Shown: positions 2,092 to 21,914, numbered from the stretch's first letter. The stretch is 61,169 nt of DNA from a virus (IMGVR_UViG_3300020109_000001:1-61169), one strand, 5' to 3'. Notes: generated by a model from the sequence alone, not told the origin. Numbers and translations are program-made.

Positions 2092-2418
2092 TTACAGCCT
2101 CGTATACAGAGTGAATTTGATCTCTTCCAGCAATCCCAGAAGGAGGCGGGGAGGGAAGTTGGTCTTGTTGATGGAGTGCAGGATTTCCTCTCGGAGCATC
2201 TCAACAGGATTGATCTTGGTCTCTCCAAGTTTCCTGAAGTATTCCTGCTTGTGCTGAACTTCGGATAAGACTTTCCTCCCCGCTCCCTTCTGATCAAGTA
2301 TCTGCTCAGGCTCGAGATCCATGAACTGGACCATGCTGTCCACACCCATACGGGTGAGGACATTGCCTGTACGAACTGATGGTTCGATGGACTTTATGAA
2401 TTCTGACCAGCCGTGCAT
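2092..2418 (-). CDS. Protein resembling the RNA polymerase alpha C-terminal domain, 108 aa
   Basis: Residues of about 12-60 follow the pattern of the alpha subunit C-terminal domain: SVRTGNVL, then an acidic helix with ILDQKGAGRKVLSEV, matching the family pattern of LSVR..N.L and the (H)hH turn G.KSL.E. That domain binds promoter UP elements and activators. The start at 2418 is chosen over an upstream ATG at 2448 because GGAG lies eight bases before it; it overlaps the preceding gene by 25 bases. Inferred role: altering host polymerase promoter choice. Alternatively it is a generic helix-hairpin-helix DNA-binding protein. Confidence 0.7.
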   Translation of the reverse strand: MHGWSEFIKSIEPSVRTGNVLTRMGVDSMVQFMDLEPEQILDQKGAGRKVLSEVQHKQEYFRKLGETKINPVEMLREEILHSINKTNFPPRLLLGLLEEIKFTLYTRL

Positions 2419-2747
2419 TGTTCTTTCTCCAGTTGTTCGATCATCCATTCGAGCAGTTCCCAGCGGAGTGCAGCATATGGACTGTTTTCACGGTCCCAGG
2501 AATACTGTCTATTCTGATCCTCATCGTCATTGGATTCAATACTTTGCCAGAAGCTACCAGGGATTGGATAACAGTTGGCTCCTGAATGTTTTGACCATCC
2601 TTTAGCGAACTCTTGGAACTCTTCTCTTAAATTACTGTAATCCATTTGATGGACACTGTCGATTACGTCACAAATCCCGAAACGAGACCAGTTCTTCTGA
2701 TCTTGCATCTTTGTGTGTACAGCTTTCAGTGCTTCCAATAGTGTCAT
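2394..2747 (-). CDS. Hypothetical protein, paralogue of the next gene upstream, 117 aa
   Basis: It shares with the 2744-3112 product an N-terminal pattern of MTLL..LK..H..MQD.KNW and a central SPYAALRWELLEWMI. Similar proteins of about 120 residues are frequent in phage early regions but have no known activity. It overlaps its paralogue by ATGA (2744-2747), which points to tandem duplication and translational coupling. Confidence 0.75.
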   Translation of the reverse strand: MTLLEALKAVHTKMQDQKNWSRFGICDVIDSVHQMDYSNLREEFQEFAKGWSKHSGANCYPIPGSFWQSIESNDDEDQNRQYSWDRENSPYAALRWELLEWMIEQLEKEQCTAGQNS

Positions 2748-9465: not shown

Positions 9466-9882
9466 TCACTCTGGCCAAACATATGGTAGGGAGTCCACTT
9501 CCACCCAGCCAAACTGAGAGTAGTGGTCGGGGTCTTTTCGTAGGAGATTGCTTCGATGAGATGCGTGAAAGGCTTCGTCTCCGAACCAGCTTGGCATTCG
9601 GTATCTTTCGAAGCAGAGGTCCAGAATAACTGGATTATGTTCGAAAGCCATTGTGTTATTGTACCCACGACGAATCCACTCCCTGATACAAAAATCAGTA
9701 TACAACCGAAGTTGTGGGACATGGTCTCTCCACATACGGGCAGCTGGATGATTCGACCAGCCACCAATATTGTAGATAGCATTCACAAGCTGCATTCCTT
9801 CTACACGCTGCTTGCCCAAACGCTTGGTGTCAAGGCACTCAACAGATTTCTGGAAGTCAGCATATGGAAGGAACGTTTGCAT
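9466..9882 (-). CDS. Pyrimidine-dimer DNA glycosylase-like protein, 138 aa
   Basis: Matches the Pyr_excise/MSMEG_6728-type family: MQTFLPYADFQKSVECLD.KRLGKQRVE, then GWSNHPAARMWR and F.IREWIRRGY. The family relates to T4 endonuclease V, which excises UV dimers, though activity of this branch is unproven. Soluble and full length. The start overlaps the previous stop (TGATG). Role: repair of phage DNA or handling of unusual bases. Confidence 0.8.
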   Translation of the reverse strand: MQTFLPYADFQKSVECLDTKRLGKQRVEGMQLVNAIYNIGGWSNHPAARMWRDHVPQLRLYTDFCIREWIRRGYNNTMAFEHNPVILDLCFERYRMPSWFGDEAFHASHRSNLLRKDPDHYSQFGWVEVDSLPYVWPE

Positions 9883-14093: not shown

Positions 14094-14516
14094 CTAACTC
14101 TTTTTAATGAAACGACCGTTTCTACCAATTGGTTGTTGTCTTCTCCTATTAGATTCTGCAACAGCTTTTCGAGTCTTATCCGACTGACGCTTACCGTGCA
14201 TTCCTCTGTGCCGACCTTTCTTCACCATATCTTGTGAGTTCTCTTTAGATGTTCCTGCGAAAAGATGCTCAGGGTTAACACAACTTGTATTATCACATGT
14301 GTGACAAGCTTTCTTTCCCGGAGGAAGTGGTCCTTTATATTTCTCATAGAACCAACGATTCGCACGAATCTTAGTTTTGTAACCATTACGAACAGCTGAG
14401 ATCAGTCCATAACCATCCTGATCTTTAGAGCCTTCCCAGGTCCAGCAGCCATTGTCCTCAACAAAGTACGACTGCTCAATTGGAACTAATTGTGTGACCT
14501 GTATATCGTGTTCCAT
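14094..14516 (-). CDS. HNH homing-type endonuclease, 140 aa
   Basis: HNH_3-like core [30 protein letters not shown], with a basic C-terminal tail. The ATG at 14516 has GGGAG upstream and overlaps the last 41 bases of the polymerase gene, so the element sits exactly at its 3' end. Such free-standing genes spread by cutting phages that lack them. Confidence 0.85.
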
Positions 14517-16503
14517 GTACTTTCTCCCATGCTTCGTCCCATGTTGCACCCCAATTATTTTCTTTATCAGCTTCTGCACTTCCCCATGTATCGCCGAACT
14601 CCATATCCACGACAACAGGAACTTCCAACTTCACAGTGTCACGCATGATCTCATAAGCACGCTGCGCATCTCGAGGATCGTTGAAACTATAATCAAGTTC
14701 GTCGTGCATTTGAAGCATCGGTACAAGGCCCGCTTGATATGAAGCACGCATCGCCAACTTTGTCATACGGGCAGCTGAACCTTGGATCAGTGAGTTCATT
14801 GCCTTGTGGGTCATGGCCCGCTTCAGGCGCTTCTTGTACCACGGGTGGTGCTCATCATGGATACGACTCTGTGCCTCTTCAATCTTCACAGCAGCCAAGA
14901 ACTCTCCGTCTTGGTAGCGAGGTTCCCAGAGTTCGTACCGGGACCGTGCACCATCCAGTAGTCGAATATACCCACGCTGATTTGCAATCCGACTACAGGC
15001 TTCCCCTAGCATCTTCACAAAAGGCATTTCACCATCGTATTGGTCCATGACTGCAGCTGCTTCTTCCAGGGTCATACCTGTCATCAGAGCAAACTTGGCA
15101 ACACCAGCACCGAATGCTTTGGCAAAGTTAACATCCTTGGCCTTCTTCCGTGGAAGCTTCGTCATCTCAGCGACGAGAGTATGGAAGTCGGTCCGTGGAT
15201 CATTCCGATACTTCGCAACTGCCTCAGCTGCACCTGGCAGATTCATGAGATATGCGAAGTGAACAATCAGTCGATATTCTTGTTGCGAGTAATCCAACGC
15301 GCCCCAGATGGTTCCCTTTTCAGGCTGAAAGATCTGACGAATTCGCCTTTTGATTCGAGGATTTCTTGAAGGCATTTGTTGGAGCGGAGGGTCGGAATAG
15401 GCAATTCGTGTGGTGCGTGTCCCTCCGTCATCACTTTTAGTCTGATGGATTTCGGCATGGATTCTTCCCCTGTGAGTGTATCCCTGGATGTAGTTTCCAA
15501 TGAACTTGTTCGAAGCCTCGTTCATCTGCTTTGACTGGACCACTAGATCAGGAAGCCAGTGATCAATCTTTGAGATGACATCAGATTCGAATGACGGGTT
15601 GCCTTTCGCTGTCCGAGGAACAGGAATTCCCTCTGACTCGAACGCTCGCATCAGGAACTGTGGTGAGTTGATGTCACCAATCGTGACTTCACGACCCACA
15701 GCAAGACGCCGGCTGATCTCACCAAGGATGTTGTTCCGATCAACAATGAACTGATGCTTGAGTTCTTCAGCATAAGTTGAGTTGACAGGAATACCAGTGC
15801 GACGCATATCAAGGACCATAGGAACAAGGTCCATCTCAAGTCGATACGCGGCTTCACAACCTTGGTTCACGATCTGAGGATAAAGAAGCTTGGCGGCTTC
15901 TAATGTTGCTACACCATCCTGCTCACCGTATGGTCCAACATACTTGGCTGGCATTCGCCACATGTCTTTCTTCGGATCACATCCATAGGCTTCAGCTGCA
16001 GCCCGAAGCAGATGCTCATCTTTTCCCTTGATCCCGTTCCTCTTACAGGTGTCATCAAGGTTGAATGTCTTCTCATATTCATGGAGCGTGAACTCCATAA
16101 TCATGGTGTCTTCAATATTCCTTGGAAGAGGGAGATCCCAACTTGTAGTGAGCCAGCCAAGGTCGTAGATAGCCCTGTGAAAAACCACTTGGCGATCAGA
16201 AAGGAAGAGTTCACGAAGAAAATCTCGTACTGGCCCTTGGTCCCAGTTCGAGGTCTCGGGATGCCGTATGGGATAATACCATGATCCGCGAGAAGTCGAT
16301 ATGCCAACACCAGCGATCCACCCCAAACCGTAGACCCAACCAGGTCCAATATCGTTTGCCAGTCCATCATCTTTGGTCTCGATGTCTACAGCTACGATTC
16401 TCTCTCCGGTTAGATCCGGAAGAGACCGAGGAACCTCCCAATTCGTTTCAGGAAGGAGGAATCCCATTGGGAGTTGGTCTGGATTTTTCTTCCGCTTGGA
16501 CAT
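14476..16503 (-). CDS. Family A DNA polymerase with 3'-5' exonuclease, 675 aa
   Basis: Replicative PolA-type enzyme. Exonuclease motif AVDIETKD (D40, E42) lies near the N-terminus; there is no 5' nuclease domain. Polymerase motif A is [12 protein letters not shown] (D404), motif [15 protein letters not shown] (452-465) and motif C MQMHDELD (600-602). In the O helix the residue matching E. coli F762 is Phe, and the usual Tyr766 is Phe (F464). The gene ends inside the HNH gene. Confidence 0.96.
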
Positions 16504-16745: not shown

Positions 16746-17267
16746 TCAAATCTCTGGGGTGGTGTTGATCTTGTGAGGTACGACACCACTTCTCATCTCC
16801 CCGCTGAGCGGCTTATGCTTCGGATGGAGCGGGGGAGAGAGTTCTTTCTCCCAATCAATATATCCAGTGGAATGTGGTGTGCTATTCGGTGTGGTTCGGG
16901 ACTCAATATCTGGGTCTTGGTTCACGTATCCTGGACCAGGCTCCATGCTTGAGATCATCTTCCGATCAGCTGCTGCGAGAATATCTGCTTTCGCCTTGGC
17001 GCGGACCAGAAGCAGATACCCGATCAGGTCATCGATGTCGTCGATGATGTCTCCGTGATTCGTCTTCACCAGTTCGAAGATATCGTAGTGAGCAGAACTC
17101 ACCATATTCTCGATGCGGTCCCACTTCCGAGCCAGCATCATGAAGGCACCTGGACCACCACGCTTCTGCCAGGAACCACCGTATGCTTTCTCCTTCTCAT
17201 GGAGAGTGCTGACGATTCCACCTGCGATGGATTCGAGGTGCTTGAGCCACGGATATTGATCAGTCAT
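16746..17267 (-). CDS. Nmad1/DUF1599-like protein, 173 aa
   Basis: Residues 15-100 resemble the nucleotide modification associated domain 1, an all-helical NTP pyrophosphohydrolase-like fold: EKAYGGSWQKRGGPGAFMMLARKWDRIENM and IIDDIDDLIGYLLLV, with a Glu/Asp-rich metal face. The tail from residue 115 is disordered. It heads the probable hypermodification genes and may police the nucleotide pool. A match to a MazG-type domain is the alternative. Confidence 0.6.
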   Translation of the reverse strand: MTDQYPWLKHLESIAGGIVSTLHEKEKAYGGSWQKRGGPGAFMMLARKWDRIENMVSSAHYDIFELVKTNHGDIIDDIDDLIGYLLLVRAKAKADILAAADRKMISSMEPGPGYVNQDPDIESRTTPNSTPHSTGYIDWEKELSPPLHPKHKPLSGEMRSGVVPHKINTTPEI

Positions 17268-17803
17268 TTCTTTCCTCCAAGTTGACGTGCCATTTGAGCA
17301 CGATCGTTAAAGTAATCTGTATTGTATTGAGAGAACATATCCATATTCTTATTCATCAGTACTCGAACAGCTGGAATAATCTTCTCAGCGATTTGCCAAC
17401 CATAGTGAACATTTCCGAGACGCATCTCTTCTATTGCGAACTCAAGCATTTCAATCAGATCAGCGCATTTGATCTTCACAGCTTCTTCAGTTGAGACAAG
17501 TCCGTCATGGTACTTACCAGCGGAAACTTCAAATGCTGTTTCAGAATCAATCCGTTCTGCAACCTGCGCCAGATCAGGATTCGCTCGCTTCGCATCGAAA
17601 GGAATGTCACCTGTACCAAGTTCGCCAGCATCATGGTACACGATTGCCACAGTGACATTCGAAGGTGGTGATCCGAACATCTCGATATAGATACGCAGAA
17701 CGTTGAACGTGTGATGACCCACGTTCTGCTTCTGAACAGTTGGCCAGATATGGTAACGCTGGACGTCACCAATATGTCGAGAACTCAATCCGTTACTCAG
17801 CAT
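17264..17803 (-). CDS. HD-domain 5'-nucleotidase, YfbR-like, 179 aa
   Basis: Pattern RYHIWPTVQKQNVGHHTFNV, then VYHDAGELGTGDIPFDAKR (H57, D58), and a later KCADLIE fits the HD-type deoxynucleoside 5'-monophosphatase family (YfbR). Such enzymes remove a canonical dNMP, often to clear the competitor of a modified base. ATGA overlap with the preceding gene and 11-base overlap with the synthase gene. Confidence 0.8.
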   Translation of the reverse strand: MLSNGLSSRHIGDVQRYHIWPTVQKQNVGHHTFNVLRIYIEMFGSPPSNVTVAIVYHDAGELGTGDIPFDAKRANPDLAQVAERIDSETAFEVSAGKYHDGLVSTEEAVKIKCADLIEMLEFAIEEMRLGNVHYGWQIAEKIIPAVRVLMNKNMDMFSQYNTDYFNDRAQMARQLGGKK

Positions 17804-18797
17804 GTTTATTGGTCCACTTTTGGAAACGACGATTGATCCACAGCTGCATAGCTAGTTGCCAGTCTGTGGCTTCGATACAACCCAACCACTCGTAACACTG
17901 TTCCCAGTTCTTCTCCTTGAAAGCCAGATGCGCCATCCAAGCAGGACGAGCCGTCAGATAGAACCACATGTTCTCATAATCGTGAGTATTCACTGGATCC
18001 ATCATGAACTTGTGGAGATCCTGGTCCCACTTGTCAGGATTGGACATAATCGACCAAGGTTCGACTCGACCAGTTCGATAGAAGTTCGTGTCAATCATGC
18101 CATGAATCGCAAACTTGTTTAGCACATCTGTGTAGGCGTGCCAGTTGTTACTCATCTGGTAGAACTTACCTACAGGTACACCAATTCTGCCAGCGAGGTA
18201 TTCCTGTAAGAACGTCATGTGTACCGCGTTGGCACCGTAAGCGCCATAAATCACGTCATTGGATCGAACACAGACGGTGATGTCCAAAGCACCATTCACG
18301 ATACGTGGATAGATGTGTGTGTTGCAGGGGACATCTTTCCACTGCTTCGCACCCAGGTTCTGGAAGTCGACGTACATATCCCACATTGAGATAACGACAC
18401 GTCGATCTTTCGGATCAGCTTTCAGTCTTTCAACTGTTCGATCCAGCTGGTCATAACCCGTCCAATCTCTCCAACGACGACCATAAGCACCATGAATATT
18501 TCCACCCTCTTCACCAAATCGACTTGAAAAGTCTCCCACAAATCGATCCAGCCAGCGACCATCCCGATCACCGTGCAACATCCACAAACACTCGAACAGA
18601 TGGAAGAACGGATTGGCGTCCCTATTCTCATCGAAGAGAACGCGCTCCATGGGTCGATCCGTGACAGTCATAACCGGGAAGGGGACAACCTTCACCTGAC
18701 CAGCCCGCGAATCCTCAATCACTCCATCTCGCTGGACGAAATGGAGTGCCTGAGGATAAAGATCGTTGATGTTGCGCCCACTCAGTACATATGTCAT
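17793..18797 (-). CDS. Thymidylate synthase family enzyme, possible dUMP hydroxymethylase, 334 aa
   Basis: Catalytic Cys in KDVPCNTHIYPR (C158); the substrate loop R178-S-N-D181 is followed by VIYGAYGANAVH with Asn190. An Asn there favours uracil over cytosine (hydroxymethylases for dCMP carry Asp). The protein has the length and N-terminus of the phage branch used for thymidylate or 5-hydroxymethyl-dUMP synthesis. Sequence alone does not settle methyl versus hydroxymethyl transfer; the downstream glycosyltransferase, coupled by ATGA, favours the latter. Confidence 0.85.
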   Translation of the reverse strand: MTYVLSGRNINDLYPQALHFVQRDGVIEDSRAGQVKVVPFPVMTVTDRPMERVLFDENRDANPFFHLFECLWMLHGDRDGRWLDRFVGDFSSRFGEEGGNIHGAYGRRWRDWTGYDQLDRTVERLKADPKDRRVVISMWDMYVDFQNLGAKQWKDVPCNTHIYPRIVNGALDITVCVRSNDVIYGAYGANAVHMTFLQEYLAGRIGVPVGKFYQMSNNWHAYTDVLNKFAIHGMIDTNFYRTGRVEPWSIMSNPDKWDQDLHKFMMDPVNTHDYENMWFYLTARPAWMAHLAFKEKNWEQCYEWLGCIEATDWQLAMQLWINRRFQKWTNKHAE

Positions 18798-19612
18798 GCT
18801 CGGTCTCCTATCTCATACGCCTTCTTCCACTGAACGGTGGCCTCGACACGAGTGCCGAACTCACCACCGCCCTTGTTCTCCTTGACACGTGCGGACACGT
18901 AACCAGGATGCAAATCCATCAGCTTGTACACTGCTTGCTCTTGTAGGTCATGTGTGCGCCAGATCGAGCAACCACCCTCAGTGTTCGTTGCCTTCTGGCC
19001 CGTGGCCCAATAGACAGTTACACAAGTGAGACGCTTCCTGCGGAGGAGTTGTAAGGTGATGTCGAAATCCTCCATAACCGGAACCCGCCCATGTTCCAGT
19101 GAGAGAAACTCATCGACCGAGAAGGCGTTGGCACGCATCCCTCGATAGTGAGGTTGTACTGCTTCGCGACCTCCGAGGCCCAAGCGATTGTTTCCTTCTC
19201 GGGCACCCAAGGAGACTTGCGCATATCCAGAATCCAACAAGCTAATGACGTCATTGTACATGTCGACTGTTTCGTCATCTTCCGTGTACCTCAACTGCCA
19301 ATTGTCGGGTGCTCGACGGACCAGGAAGTTTACATCATCGTCGACCATCAGGATCTTCTTGTATCCACGCTTTCGCGCTTCAACGGCCATCTGCCGGCGC
19401 TTCTCTCCAATGTTCCAATAACCCAACATCATAACGTCATTAACGTGCTCAAGAATCTTCGGATCACGGTAACGCCCACCATCTTCAACGTGCGTGAACA
19501 TAAACGTGTGTTCACGAAGCTTCGGTGACAGACATTTGAGAGTGTCCCGGAATCCTAGCACCTGCTTGTGACGACCCCGAGAAGGAATCGCGATCATCAT
19601 ATCATTCGACAT
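18794..19612 (-). CDS. TET-associated glycosyltransferase (TAGT) family, 272 aa
   Basis: GT-A-like: IAIPSRGRH at residues 7-15, DxD-like MVDDDVNF, EDFDITLQLLRR, then GGCSIWRT and LHPGYVSARVK. These are the hallmarks of TAGT, enzymes predicted to add sugar to hydroxymethyl-pyrimidines in phage DNA. ATG at 19612 with GAGGAG upstream; a 28-residue upstream extension is rejected. No TET dioxygenase is seen in this genome, so the hydroxymethyl group would come from the adjacent synthase. Confidence 0.8.
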   Translation of the reverse strand: MSNDMMIAIPSRGRHKQVLGFRDTLKCLSPKLREHTFMFTHVEDGGRYRDPKILEHVNDVMMLGYWNIGEKRRQMAVEARKRGYKKILMVDDDVNFLVRRAPDNWQLRYTEDDETVDMYNDVISLLDSGYAQVSLGAREGNNRLGLGGREAVQPHYRGMRANAFSVDEFLSLEHGRVPVMEDFDITLQLLRRKRLTCVTVYWATGQKATNTEGGCSIWRTHDLQEQAVYKLMDLHPGYVSARVKENKGGGEFGTRVEATVQWKKAYEIGDRA

Positions 19613-20051
19613 TTTCGGACTCCTCAAGTTTCCTGGTGATTCCCTCGAGATATTCATCCCCAGCAGGAACGTCAGTGCTTCCTGGAGCCGGCTCATCTTC
19701 TTTCCCCGGATATGTATCTGGAAACCATCCTAATGATCCATCCTGATCCATATCACCGTGCCAGAACTCGAAATTCGGAACAAGGATGCTCTTCCAATAA
19801 TCAGGATACTGGTTCTGTGGATGCTGTAGAATTAGATTTGGCTCGAATATAAGACCACGGCGAACAATCTCTCGAGCCATACAGTCTCCGATCATCATGA
19901 GATAGACCAGGTATGGCTTCCACTCAGAATCTTCAGCCTCCCCCGCCTGAATGTCTCGATGAAGATCACGAGCGTCACGAAAGTTGTCCAGAACGACGTT
20001 ATCCGGTAAAACCGCTGCACTGATTACAGGGTTTGGGAATGGTAGATACAT
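19602..20051 (-). CDS. Divergent glycosylase-fold protein, 149 aa
   Basis: Opening YLPFPNPVISAAVLPDNVVLDNFRDA and later GDCMAREIVRRG echo the pyrimidine-dimer glycosylase-like gene at 9466-9882, without its KRLGKQRVE block. It may be a degenerate paralogue with a binding role. Overlaps the TAGT start by 11 bases. A 13-bp palindrome GGGTATTATACCC (20071-20083) just upstream is a likely control site. Confidence 0.55.
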   Translation of the reverse strand: MYLPFPNPVISAAVLPDNVVLDNFRDARDLHRDIQAGEAEDSEWKPYLVYLMMIGDCMAREIVRRGLIFEPNLILQHPQNQYPDYWKSILVPNFEFWHGDMDQDGSLGWFPDTYPGKEDEPAPGSTDVPAGDEYLEGITRKLEESENVE

Positions 20052-20075
20052 CAGATTTCTCCTTCTCTTAGGGTA

Positions 20076-20144
20076 TTATACCCTGTCAAAAGGGCTGGCG
20101 CTACGGGGATCAGCGGGGAGAAGCGCTCGGTCGAAGTGTTTCAT
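20076..20144 (-). CDS. Possible microprotein, 22 aa
   Basis: MKHFDRALLPADPRS... with a strong AGGAG site seven bases before the ATG. It ends inside the palindrome upstream of the next gene, so it might be a leader peptide. Confidence 0.3.
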   Translation of the reverse strand: MKHFDRALLPADPRSASPFDRV

Positions 20145-20154
20145 GGGGATGCTC

Positions 20155-20313
20155 CTAACCGAACAGAAAAATAATGAACGAGCCTGACGCAGCGACGAAC
20201 ATGGTAAAGATCACTGCGGACAACACAGAGGCAAGTTCGCTCGATCTGAACATTTTTACCCGATCCTTCAGCGGGATACGTTCGAGATAGATGCGCTTAC
20301 GGGGTGGGGTCAT
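20155..20313 (-). CDS. Small membrane protein, 52 aa
   Basis: Basic N-terminal 20 residues and one transmembrane span (residues 28-50). AAGGAG lies eight bases before the ATG. Unrecognised. Confidence 0.6.
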   Translation of the reverse strand: MTPPRKRIYLERIPLKDRVKMFRSSELASVLSAVIFTMFVAASGSFIIFLFG

Positions 20314-20334
20314 GTGGTTGCTCCTTAGAGGTGC

Positions 20335-20583
20335 TTAGATTTGTTTCTCGTCACCGTCAAGATATCGCTTGAAGTCGATCGTCCAAGGATATTCCTTCTG
20401 CATGTTCTTGAACTGTTCAGCAGTACCAACCCATGCATAGTTGCGGTCAGTTGTTTCGCCAAGGCAACTGTAATTGACGTATGTCCTGCTCTCAGCATTC
20501 CAGGCGATGTATTTCCTACCACCTGGAAATCGAGACTGAACAGCCCATTCGTTGTATTCCCTTTTCTTCTTCAGAGGTTTCAT
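20335..20583 (-). CDS. Hypothetical protein, 82 aa
   Basis: Basic, Tyr/Trp-rich protein (SRFPGGRKYIAWNAESRTYVNY). Coupled by an ATGA overlap to the base-hypermodification gene upstream. No function recognised. Confidence 0.65.
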   Translation of the reverse strand: MKPLKKKREYNEWAVQSRFPGGRKYIAWNAESRTYVNYSCLGETTDRNYAWVGTAEQFKNMQKEYPWTIDFKRYLDGDEKQI

Positions 20584-21527
20584 CGATACGTTCCTCGTGG
20601 CCTTCCTTCACCATTGTTTGCTCGCTGGTACTTGTCGAACTCGCATAGCGAGTGCTCGATCTCTCGCATCTCTAATGGACGCTCGGGCCAAGGCCAATTT
20701 TCAGTTGGTCTCGACATAACTCGAAGATCAAACATTTCTTTATTCCACTCTTCCTTCTTCTGAGTGAAATTCAGCTTCCGACCATGAAGTCTGTTTAGAC
20801 CACGCATCGCACCGGGTCCAGCATTGGCCCAGGTCATGATATCGGGAGCACGCTCCAAGGCCCGAGTGAAGCGGAGGTCGGTCACAACCTCATAGGCCAT
20901 GAAATCACCCAGGTAGCTGAACTTGCGAAGCCAGTCCCAGGCGTCTTGGAGAGTGACCGTGCAATTTGTATCAAACATGATTTCTGCACCTCCTCTCCAA
21001 CTGACATTGTCGATGAGGACACAATCACGTTCTACATTGTGTCGCGTGTATCGAAGTGGGTACTTATCCCTCCAGAAATGCTCCAAGGCCCAACACACAC
21101 CGTGCAGTTTTGTCATTCCGCTCGGAGTCTTGATGATGTAGGCACCTGTGACGAAGGGACCATGAGGACCAATATGCTTGAGCAAAGCATCCTTGATGAT
21201 CTGCCCATCACCAGACTTTCGGAACTCTTCATATGGATTATCTCCAACATAAAGATCATCGGTGTTGAACAATGCTTCACCACTCACAGTCCGATTGAAC
21301 CAACGGAACAGAACCGTCGCCAGAATGATGTCTTCTCGATTCCGGAGCGGATCACGAACATTCTCTCGGAACCACACAGTCGTGCGATCATCTTCACGAA
21401 ACACGTTCGTGAATTTGTAATAGTCGAGAATCTCATCCTTGGTCCAAGGACGAGGCTCCCCGGCCTGCTTCTTCAGGAAGATGCGGTAGCGTTCCTGGAT
21501 GAAATTGAAGAAGGGTGTGGGATCCAT
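20580..21527 (-). CDS. DNA base hypermodification enzyme, 5-hmdU kinase helical/aGPT-PPlase family, 315 aa
   Basis: Opening FFNFIQERYRIFLKKQAGE, PWTKDEILDYYKFTNVFREDDR and later LFRWFNRTVSGE and FMAYEVVTDLRFT match the helical family described as alpha-glutamyl/putrescinyl thymine pyrophosphorylase or 5-hmdU DNA kinase helical domain. It has a DNA glycosylase-like fold that acts on 5-hydroxymethyl-dU in DNA. No P-loop is present. With the synthase and TAGT it makes a base-modification set. The exact reaction (phosphoryl or amino-group transfer) cannot be read here. Confidence 0.75.
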   Translation of the reverse strand: MDPTPFFNFIQERYRIFLKKQAGEPRPWTKDEILDYYKFTNVFREDDRTTVWFRENVRDPLRNREDIILATVLFRWFNRTVSGEALFNTDDLYVGDNPYEEFRKSGDGQIIKDALLKHIGPHGPFVTGAYIIKTPSGMTKLHGVCWALEHFWRDKYPLRYTRHNVERDCVLIDNVSWRGGAEIMFDTNCTVTLQDAWDWLRKFSYLGDFMAYEVVTDLRFTRALERAPDIMTWANAGPGAMRGLNRLHGRKLNFTQKKEEWNKEMFDLRVMSRPTENWPWPERPLEMREIEHSLCEFDKYQRANNGEGRPRGTYR

Positions 21528-21530
21528 GAT

Positions 21531-21914
21531 TCAATCCTTCCTCTCAATGCTGAAAGACCAACGCCAGTCTTGTTCCATCATCTCAGCAACTCTTTCACCA
21601 ATCTTACTTCCAAACTCACCAGCTTGAATTGCTGCAACAACCTTCGCCTTGACAGCAGCATTATGCTCGACCATGTACTCTCGCACAGCTTCCCGAGCCG
21701 CATTGCGAAGTTCATGACCGACCAACCAATCAAGATATGAAACTTCTTTGACACCATACTCATGCGAAGTCTTCGGATGACCTGTGTTTTCACTTACAGG
21801 TTTGTTGAAGGCTGCAGCAATCAACTTCTCAACCATTTCAGGTGTTGTGTTGAATGCTTCGATCACCTTCGCCTGGATTGTTGTCTTCAAGAGTGCTTCG
21901 ATTTGTTGGTCCAT
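21531..21914 (-). CDS. Hypothetical helical protein, 127 aa
   Basis: Helical, with repeated Ala-rich amphipathic helices (REAVREYMVEHNAAVKAKVVAAI). Common in phage early regions, without function. It lies right after promoter 21946-21974 and four bases before the hypermodification enzyme, so it heads that transcript. Confidence 0.65.
   Translation of the reverse strand: MDQQIEALLKTTIQAKVIEAFNTTPEMVEKLIAAAFNKPVSENTGHPKTSHEYGVKEVSYLDWLVGHELRNAAREAVREYMVEHNAAVKAKVVAAIQAGEFGSKIGERVAEMMEQDWRWSFSIERKD

What the first reader, a model, noticed from the sequence alone, without database searches (positions are those of the whole stretch)
16746..21914. Possible TET-free base hypermodification route
The island joins an Nmad1-like protein, a YfbR-type nucleotidase, a thymidylate synthase family enzyme with the uracil-type Asn, a TET-associated glycosyltransferase and a 5-hmdU kinase/aGPT-PPlase family protein, but no TET dioxygenase. 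TAGT usually pairs with TET on 5-methylcytosine. Here the hydroxymethyl group would be made on the nucleotide and then decorated in DNA, which suggests a glycosylated or aminoacylated 5-hmU derivative not matching a standard pathway.
Basis: partly seen in the sequence, partly recalled or inferred. Interest (0 to 1): 0.82.

Follow-up and report, generated by a model that had tools for sequence, protein, structure and literature searches.

The report
TET-free phage thymine-glycosylation cassette
This virus carries a compact gene set that probably makes a hydroxymethylated version of thymine as a free nucleotide, builds it into its DNA and then attaches a sugar to it, and related viruses show that one helper protein repeatedly changes partner between a sugar-adding and a phosphate-adding enzyme.

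Summary
The genes are real, and TET is absent from the record; the same search does find TET in control phages. The TS-family enzyme has the uracil-type Asn and is 42% identical to M6 gp58. Two corrections. (1) The "5-hmdU kinase" is only the helical partner (PF18723, aGPT-Pplase1). The catalytic kinase (PF18748) and the amino acid:DNA transferase (PF18724) are missing, so aminoacylation is unsupported and glycosylation is the coherent reading. (2) TAGT without TET is not odd here. In three viral-contig scans (202 loci after removing duplicates), TAGT sits with TS and PF18723 in 130 loci and with TET in 5, never with both. PF18723 follows the TS route rather than the kinase. TAGT and kinase exclude each other beside it (1 locus with both of 178; kinase-seeded scan 1 of 78), and its tree needs 11 partner switches. 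Other loci have methyltransferases or other enzymes there. Best reading: dUMP to 5-hmdUMP, incorporation, then TAGT glycosylates 5-hmdU in DNA, with PF18723 as a 5-hmdU-DNA recognition or site-selection subunit (inferred). The gene combination was noted before in Pelagiphages; the partner-swap rule appears undescribed in the papers I could search. No chemistry has been tested.

The parts
20580..21527 (-). aGPT-Pplase1 / PF18723 'HMUDK_hel': helical partner protein of 5-hmdU DNA kinase, without P-loop; proposed 5-hmdU-DNA recognition/site-selection subunit
   Evidence: PF18723 3.4e-47; 35% identical to M6 gp55; AF2 model pLDDT 95; catalytic kinase family PF18748 absent from record
20335..20583 (-). 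82-aa protein of unknown function, shared with the related cassette in L016
   Evidence: PHROG_18048 1.4e-7
19602..20051 (-). 149-aa diverged relative of the Pyr_excise/MSMEG_6728 family; paralog of window 9466-9882
   Evidence: family HMM 2.6e-40 (the window copy was among the sequences used to build it); homologs PF03013 6.2e-23 and NF038085 6e-40
18794..19612 (-). TAGT-family DNA glycosyltransferase, GT-A fold, invariant DDD motif; start corrected from 19696
   Evidence: PF20691 9.9e-16 and PHROG_842 1.9e-29; GT-A fold by model
17793..18797 (-). TS-family dUMP (hydroxy)methylase, catalytic C158, uracil-type N190
17264..17803 (-). HD-domain 5'-deoxynucleotidase (YfbR/DatZ-like), probably clears competing dTMP/dTTP (inferred)
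   Evidence: PF12917 9.8e-11; PHROG_7076 2e-16
   Evidence: 41% identical over 109 aa to Pam3_54; homologs in many cassettes; also found as a C-terminal extension of LuckyBarnes TS
14476..16503 (-). family A DNA polymerase immediately downstream, as in M6, Pam3 and most TAGT cassettes
   Evidence: PF00476 8.6e-44; 31% to M6 gp62

Best explanation
The island is a TET-free thymine-glycosylation cassette. Step 1: the TS-family enzyme turns dUMP into 5-hydroxymethyl-dUMP (inferred from orthology with M6 gp58 and N190). Step 2: the HD nucleotidase reduces competing dTMP/dTTP and the nucleotide is incorporated as 5-hmdU by the adjacent PolA (inferred). Step 3: TAGT, a GT-A glycosyltransferase, puts a sugar on the 5-hydroxymethyl group in DNA, giving a glycosyl-5-hmdU, chemically a relative of base J (inferred; the sugar is unknown). 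Step 4: the PF18723 protein acts on the same DNA, most likely as the subunit that recognises or presents 5-hmdU and sets which sites are modified. In M6-like phages the same protein sits beside the P-loop kinase; here TAGT has taken the kinase's place (exchange shown by gene content; mechanism inferred).
For: Families and residues. Synteny with M6 and Pam3, with kinase/PLP/rSAM/transferase replaced by TAGT. No TET, kinase or amino acid:DNA transferase in the record, with positive controls. Deduplicated counts: 129 TAGT+PF18723+TS; 45 kinase+PF18723; 5 TAGT+TET, all without TS and PF18723; 1 with TAGT and kinase. In the PF18723-seeded set alone, Fisher p = 3.7e-8 for TAGT-kinase exclusion. Kinase-seeded scan: 71/78 have PF18723, 1/78 has TAGT. 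PF18723 tree: 11 switches, well-supported branches forcing at least 7-8 changes of label. Sugar-nucleotide enzymes inside some TAGT cassettes: L016, L021, L035, L096. GT-A fold. 5-hmdU kinase is specific for hmU over hmC (PMC6457204) and favours TG/TC sites (PMC6449724); T4 beta-GT glucosylates 5hmU in duplex only when mispaired with G (PMC4111573), so a helper for 5hmU:A pairs is plausible.
Against: Nothing biochemical is shown. TS sequence cannot fully separate methylation from hydroxymethylation (stressed in PMC5977210). ctUhy936 (complete, circular) and contigs L192, L210, L233 have TAGT and TS without detected PF18723, so the helper is not obligatory. L018 and L274 carry both TAGT and kinase. 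Commercial 5-hmdU kinase works in vitro (PMC7653180); whether it includes the helical protein could not be read. No natural TAGT-PF18723 fusion was seen, and no complex could be modelled. The fold match of PF18723 to the glycinyltransferase 8z2m is weak (E 0.29, TM 0.33).
Confidence: 0.65

Rival explanations
1. The PF18723 protein is not a recognition subunit but does a separate job needed whenever the genome is first filled with 5-hmdU, for example processing leftover 5-hmdU to thymine; TAGT works alone.
For: PF18723 tracks the TS route and is absent from TET-route kinase and TAGT loci (Tonitrus, L280, L200 group). How leftover hmU becomes T in PhiW-14 is stated to be unknown (PMC5977210), and PhiW-14 has PF18723.
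Against: In the scored loci it is on the same strand as kinase (46/46) or TAGT (132/132) and mostly close by. Pfam names it a domain of the 5-hmdU DNA kinase. No redox motif was identified.
Confidence: 0.2
2. The pathway makes an aminoacylated or amino-alkylated thymidine, as in M6 or ViI, with TAGT acting elsewhere.
For: PF18723 is the M6 gp55 family and the locus is syntenic with M6.
Against: No kinase PF18748 or transferase PF18724 in the record, and no PLP or radical SAM homolog in the island. Among TAGT records tested none has them either.
Confidence: 0.05
3. The TS-family enzyme makes ordinary dTMP or the substrate is 5-hmdC; TAGT glycosylates cytosine or a non-DNA target.
For: TAGT relatives in T6-like phages act on glucosyl-hmC (PMC13390438; PHROG_842 name); TS sequence alone is ambiguous.
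Against: N190 instead of Asp in 100/100 TAGT-cassette TS. No second TS and no cytosine C5-methyltransferase was found among the window proteins scanned. PF18723, tied to 5-hmdU chemistry, is next door.
Confidence: 0.1

Closest known systems
Yuavirus/M6 thymidine-hypermodification cassette (5-NedU; gp51-gp62)
   Same: Same order PF18723 - TS - HD - small genes - PolA; TS 42% and PF18723 35% identical
   Different: M6 has catalytic kinase gp54, amino acid:DNA transferase gp51, PLP enzyme gp52, radical SAM gp53 and Nmad5; the window has TAGT instead of all of these
Pseudanabaena phage Pam3 cassette
   Same: PF18723, TS, deoxynucleotidase, the 16746-17267-type protein and PolA in the same order
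   Different: Pam3 has kinase and transferase, no TAGT
Pelagiphage clade II genes described in PMC9599517
   Same: TS, aGPT-PPlase1, 5'-deoxynucleotidase and putative beta-glucosyl-HMC-alpha-glucosyltransferase in one region near PolA
   Different: Reported there as co-occurrence only; partner swap and kinase exclusion not discussed in the passages read
Brevibacterium phage LuckyBarnes gp38-gp41
   Same: TS, two TAGTs, PF18723 homolog and nearby PolA, no TET or kinase
   Different: TS carries a fused C-terminal domain related to window 16746-17267; two TAGT copies; different gene order
TET-TAGT-ParB loci (L200, L203, L235, L239, L242, L248 and others)
   Same: TAGT glycosyltransferase
   Different: TET dioxygenase makes the hydroxymethyl group in DNA; no TS, no PF18723
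T4/T6 hmC glucosylation
   Same: TS-superfamily hydroxymethylase on the nucleotide plus DNA glycosyltransferase
   Different: Cytosine substrate (D179 in T4 gp42); no PF18723 in T4

Membership tests
M6-type thymidine hypermodification (5-hmdU, kinase, amino acid transfer) | Uracil-type TS-family hydroxymethylase | tested here: met
   N190, C158; 42% to M6 gp58
M6-type thymidine hypermodification (5-hmdU, kinase, amino acid transfer) | Catalytic 5-hmdU DNA kinase PF18748 | tested here: not met
   Absent from record at E <= 1; M6 and Pam3 found by the same family search
M6-type thymidine hypermodification (5-hmdU, kinase, amino acid transfer) | Amino acid:DNA transferase PF18724 | tested here: not met
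   Absent; M6, Pam3 and Tonitrus ring
M6-type thymidine hypermodification (5-hmdU, kinase, amino acid transfer) | PF18723 helical protein | tested here: met
   8.1e-49 in the record
TET-TAGT glycosylation system | TET/JBP dioxygenase PF12851 | tested here: not met
   Absent; eight TAGT contigs and Tonitrus ring
TET-TAGT glycosylation system | TAGT PF20691 | tested here: met
   9.9e-16, above the curated cut-off
TS/PF18723/TAGT cassette (as in Pelagiphage clade II and LuckyBarnes) | TAGT, PF18723 and uracil-type TS on one strand near PolA, no TET, no kinase | tested here: met
TS/PF18723/TAGT cassette (as in Pelagiphage clade II and LuckyBarnes) | Glycosylated 5-hmdU in virion DNA | not testable with these tools
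   No chemistry available
GT-A glycosyltransferases | GT-A fold with acidic metal/nucleotide-sugar motif | tested here: met
   66 PDB matches at E <= 0.001, invariant D91-D93
Nmad1 (16746-17267) | Match to a Pfam nucleotide-modification domain | tested here: not met
   No Pfam family at E <= 1 for the window protein; none at E <= 0.1 for four homologs

The most novel reading that the evidence does not exclude
PF18723 is not a kinase domain but a general 5-hmdU-DNA reader or base-presenting subunit that has been re-paired in evolution with at least three enzyme classes (P-loop kinase, TAGT glycosyltransferase, FkbM/class I methyltransferase, possibly others), so that one recognition module feeds many thymine chemistries; TAGT cassettes then give widespread phages a base-J-like glycosyl-5-hmdU made without any TET/JBP enzyme.
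Probability: 0.4. Interest if true: 0.78.

Novelty: new variant of a known kind. Interest (0 to 1): 0.62.

Why it matters
It would mean that glycosylated 5-hydroxymethyluracil, known in nature as base J of kinetoplastids made by JBP oxygenases and a glucosyltransferase, also exists in common phages through a different, nucleotide-level route. It makes the role of the helical partner of the 5-hmdU kinase directly testable, because nature has run the swap: same partner, different transferase. It also turns PF18723 neighbours into a search tool for further thymine modifications (methyltransferases, radical SAM enzymes and inositol-phosphate synthase appear beside it), with value for restriction-resistant DNA and phage counter-defence.

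Tried and rejected
Amino-acid route: rejected, kinase and transferase absent. TET elsewhere in the record: rejected. dCMP-type TS: rejected by N190. PDB sequence searches with PF18723 and TAGT, single sequence and profile: no relative. Fold search of the PF18723 model: only a weak hit to PaMx11 glycinyltransferase 8z2m, not used as proof. Tonitrus TET as single query in viral contigs: no relative; TET loci were later reached through TAGT. Genome-contig scan with TAGT: one MAG contig only, so no host assignment. dCTP deaminase first looked exclusive to TAGT cassettes, but a fuller count gives 29/131 TAGT against 7/73 kinase loci, so it is enriched only. TAGT tree: no clean separation of TS-type from TET-type beyond TET forming one small clade. 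Key papers Lee 2021 (gkab781), Iyer 2013 (gkt573), Burke 2021 and Wen 2024 were not held, so prior depiction of this architecture cannot be excluded.

Full report
Setting. The window is a 61,169-base virus record (IMG/VR, linear) of a tailed phage with terminase, portal, protease, major head protein and tail genes, PolA, a SNF2-family helicase, UvrD helicase and a primase, and genes related to cyanophage Pam3. The island lies on the minus strand, upstream of PolA, and its TAGT, TS, HD and 16746-17267 genes overlap end to end.

Observation. Pfam and PHROG searches confirm the HD nucleotidase, TS family, TAGT and PF18723 proteins. The 'Nmad1' protein has no Pfam match but is 41% identical over 109 aa to the Pam3 protein annotated 'nucleotide modification', and LuckyBarnes TS has a related C-terminal extension. 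TAGT homologs start at the methionine at 19612, so the 19696 start is probably too early.

What the PF18723 protein is. Pfam now splits the M6 pathway into catalytic 5-hmdU kinase PF18748 (M6 gp54), helical partner PF18723 (gp55) and amino acid:DNA transferase PF18724 (gp51). The window has only PF18723. Whole-record searches found no PF18748, PF18724 or TET PF12851 in the window or in any TAGT record of that set, while M6, Pam3 and Tonitrus were found as expected. So the aminoacyl branch is not available from known parts.

Relatives. Scans seeded with PF18723, with TAGT, with the LuckyBarnes TAGT and with the kinase were annotated with profiles built here. After removing duplicates, the first three scans hold 202 loci: TAGT+PF18723+TS 129, kinase+PF18723 45, PF18723 with neither 10, TAGT+TS without PF18723 8, TAGT+TET 5, TAGT+PF18723 without TS 2, TAGT alone 2, all of TAGT+kinase+PF18723+TS 1. 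TAGT and PF18723 are on one strand in 132 of 132 loci. In the kinase-seeded set 71 of 78 have PF18723 and 1 has TAGT. Some loci are cut by contig ends, so absences there are weak; part of the eight TAGT+TS loci without PF18723 are of this kind (L170's whole record has it), but ctUhy936, a complete circular record, truly lacks it. The loci were picked by similarity to TAGT, PF18723 or kinase, so the proportions describe these samples, not all phages.

Two contexts of TAGT. Where TAGT has no TS it also lacks PF18723, except in truncated L251 and in L035; 8 of the 10 TS-less, PF18723-less loci carry a TET gene (E 1e-28 to 1e-32), with ParB-like genes alongside in those inspected. TET-route kinase loci (Tonitrus, L280) likewise lack PF18723. 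PF18723 therefore follows the nucleotide-level TS route, whichever transferase acts later.

Partner swaps. On the PF18723 tree (88 rows) kinase and TAGT labels need 11 changes; starred branches alone force at least 7 to 8 changes of each label. The tree is a quick one and deep branches are weak. Within loci that have neither, genes touching PF18723 include FkbM methyltransferases (L043, L044, L046, L048; also near it in L029), a class I methyltransferase (L047), and an unassigned enzyme followed by a SPASM radical SAM protein (L076-L078, L093). This is the basis for reading PF18723 as a recognition module rather than a kinase part. It is an inference from gene content.

Chemistry. N190 marks a uracil substrate; the equivalent D179 is the cytosine determinant in T4 gp42 (PMC6400193). 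The TAGT model is a GT-A fold (pLDDT 91.5; 66 PDB matches at E <= 0.001). Some cassettes add sugar-nucleotide enzymes (epimerase in L016 and L021, GDP-mannose dehydratase in L035, cytidylyltransferase with mannose-6-P isomerase domain in L096, NTP transferase in L018), which argues for sugar transfer and for differing sugars. None was found in the window, so a host nucleotide sugar is assumed. T4 beta-GT can glucosylate 5hmU in duplex DNA only opposite G, which gives a reason why a 5hmU:A glycosyltransferase might need help.

Prior knowledge. PMC9599517 reports TS, aGPT-PPlase1, deoxynucleotidase and a glucosyltransferase together in Pelagiphages; M6-like cassettes are described in PMC9476957. 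The main pathway papers were not readable here. I therefore call this a new variant of a known kind: the parts are known and the combination has been glimpsed, while the mutual exclusion, the TS-route rule and the repeated swap appear undescribed in what I could read.

Verdict. Glycosylated 5-hmdU by a TET-free route is likely (about 0.65 to 0.7); the adaptor role of PF18723 is more likely than any single alternative but unproven (about 0.4 to 0.5).

Noticed in passing
window 9466-9882 (-) and 19602-20051 (-): An intact Pyr_excise/MSMEG_6728-family protein (PF03013 4e-21) and a diverged paralog of it inside the modification island; the family occurs in 12/131 TAGT+TS loci but 1/73 kinase loci.
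   Followed up: partly
L043, L044, L046, L048, L029, L047: FkbM or class I methyltransferases next to or near PF18723, with neither kinase nor TAGT: possible O-methylated or other 5-hmdU derivative.
   Followed up: partly
L076-L078, L093: PF18723 overlapped by a ~323-aa protein without Pfam match (looks GT-B-like by eye, unverified) and a SPASM radical SAM protein; no kinase or TAGT.
   Followed up: no
L091 10908-12973: A myo-inositol-1-phosphate synthase and a weak ADDT-like protein between PF18723 and the kinase: hints at an inositol-derived thymidine modification.
   Followed up: no
L018, L274: The only loci with both TAGT and kinase; L018 has two TAGTs and a MobA-like nucleotidyltransferase. 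Might make a mixed modification.
   Followed up: no
L017, L025, L031 and about 30 others: A recurrent ~200-aa family near PF18723 in both TAGT and kinase cassettes (15/131 and 15/73) with motifs resembling uracil-DNA glycosylases; no Pfam match.
   Followed up: no
L174 (Tonitrus), L280: TET plus kinase cassettes without TS and without PF18723.
   Followed up: partly
M6 gp54 (L004 4686-5249), Bhz59_00040 (L008), Vibrio K471_0184 (L013): The P-loop 5-hmdU kinase is annotated 'terminase small subunit' in public records; M6 gp54 matches PF18748 7.7e-18.
   Followed up: yes
window 2092-2448 (-): Small protein with an RNA polymerase alpha C-terminal-domain match (PF03118 3.8e-6), possibly a transcription takeover factor.
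   Followed up: no
window 20052-20334: About 280-bp gap without a called gene in an otherwise tightly packed island.
   Followed up: no
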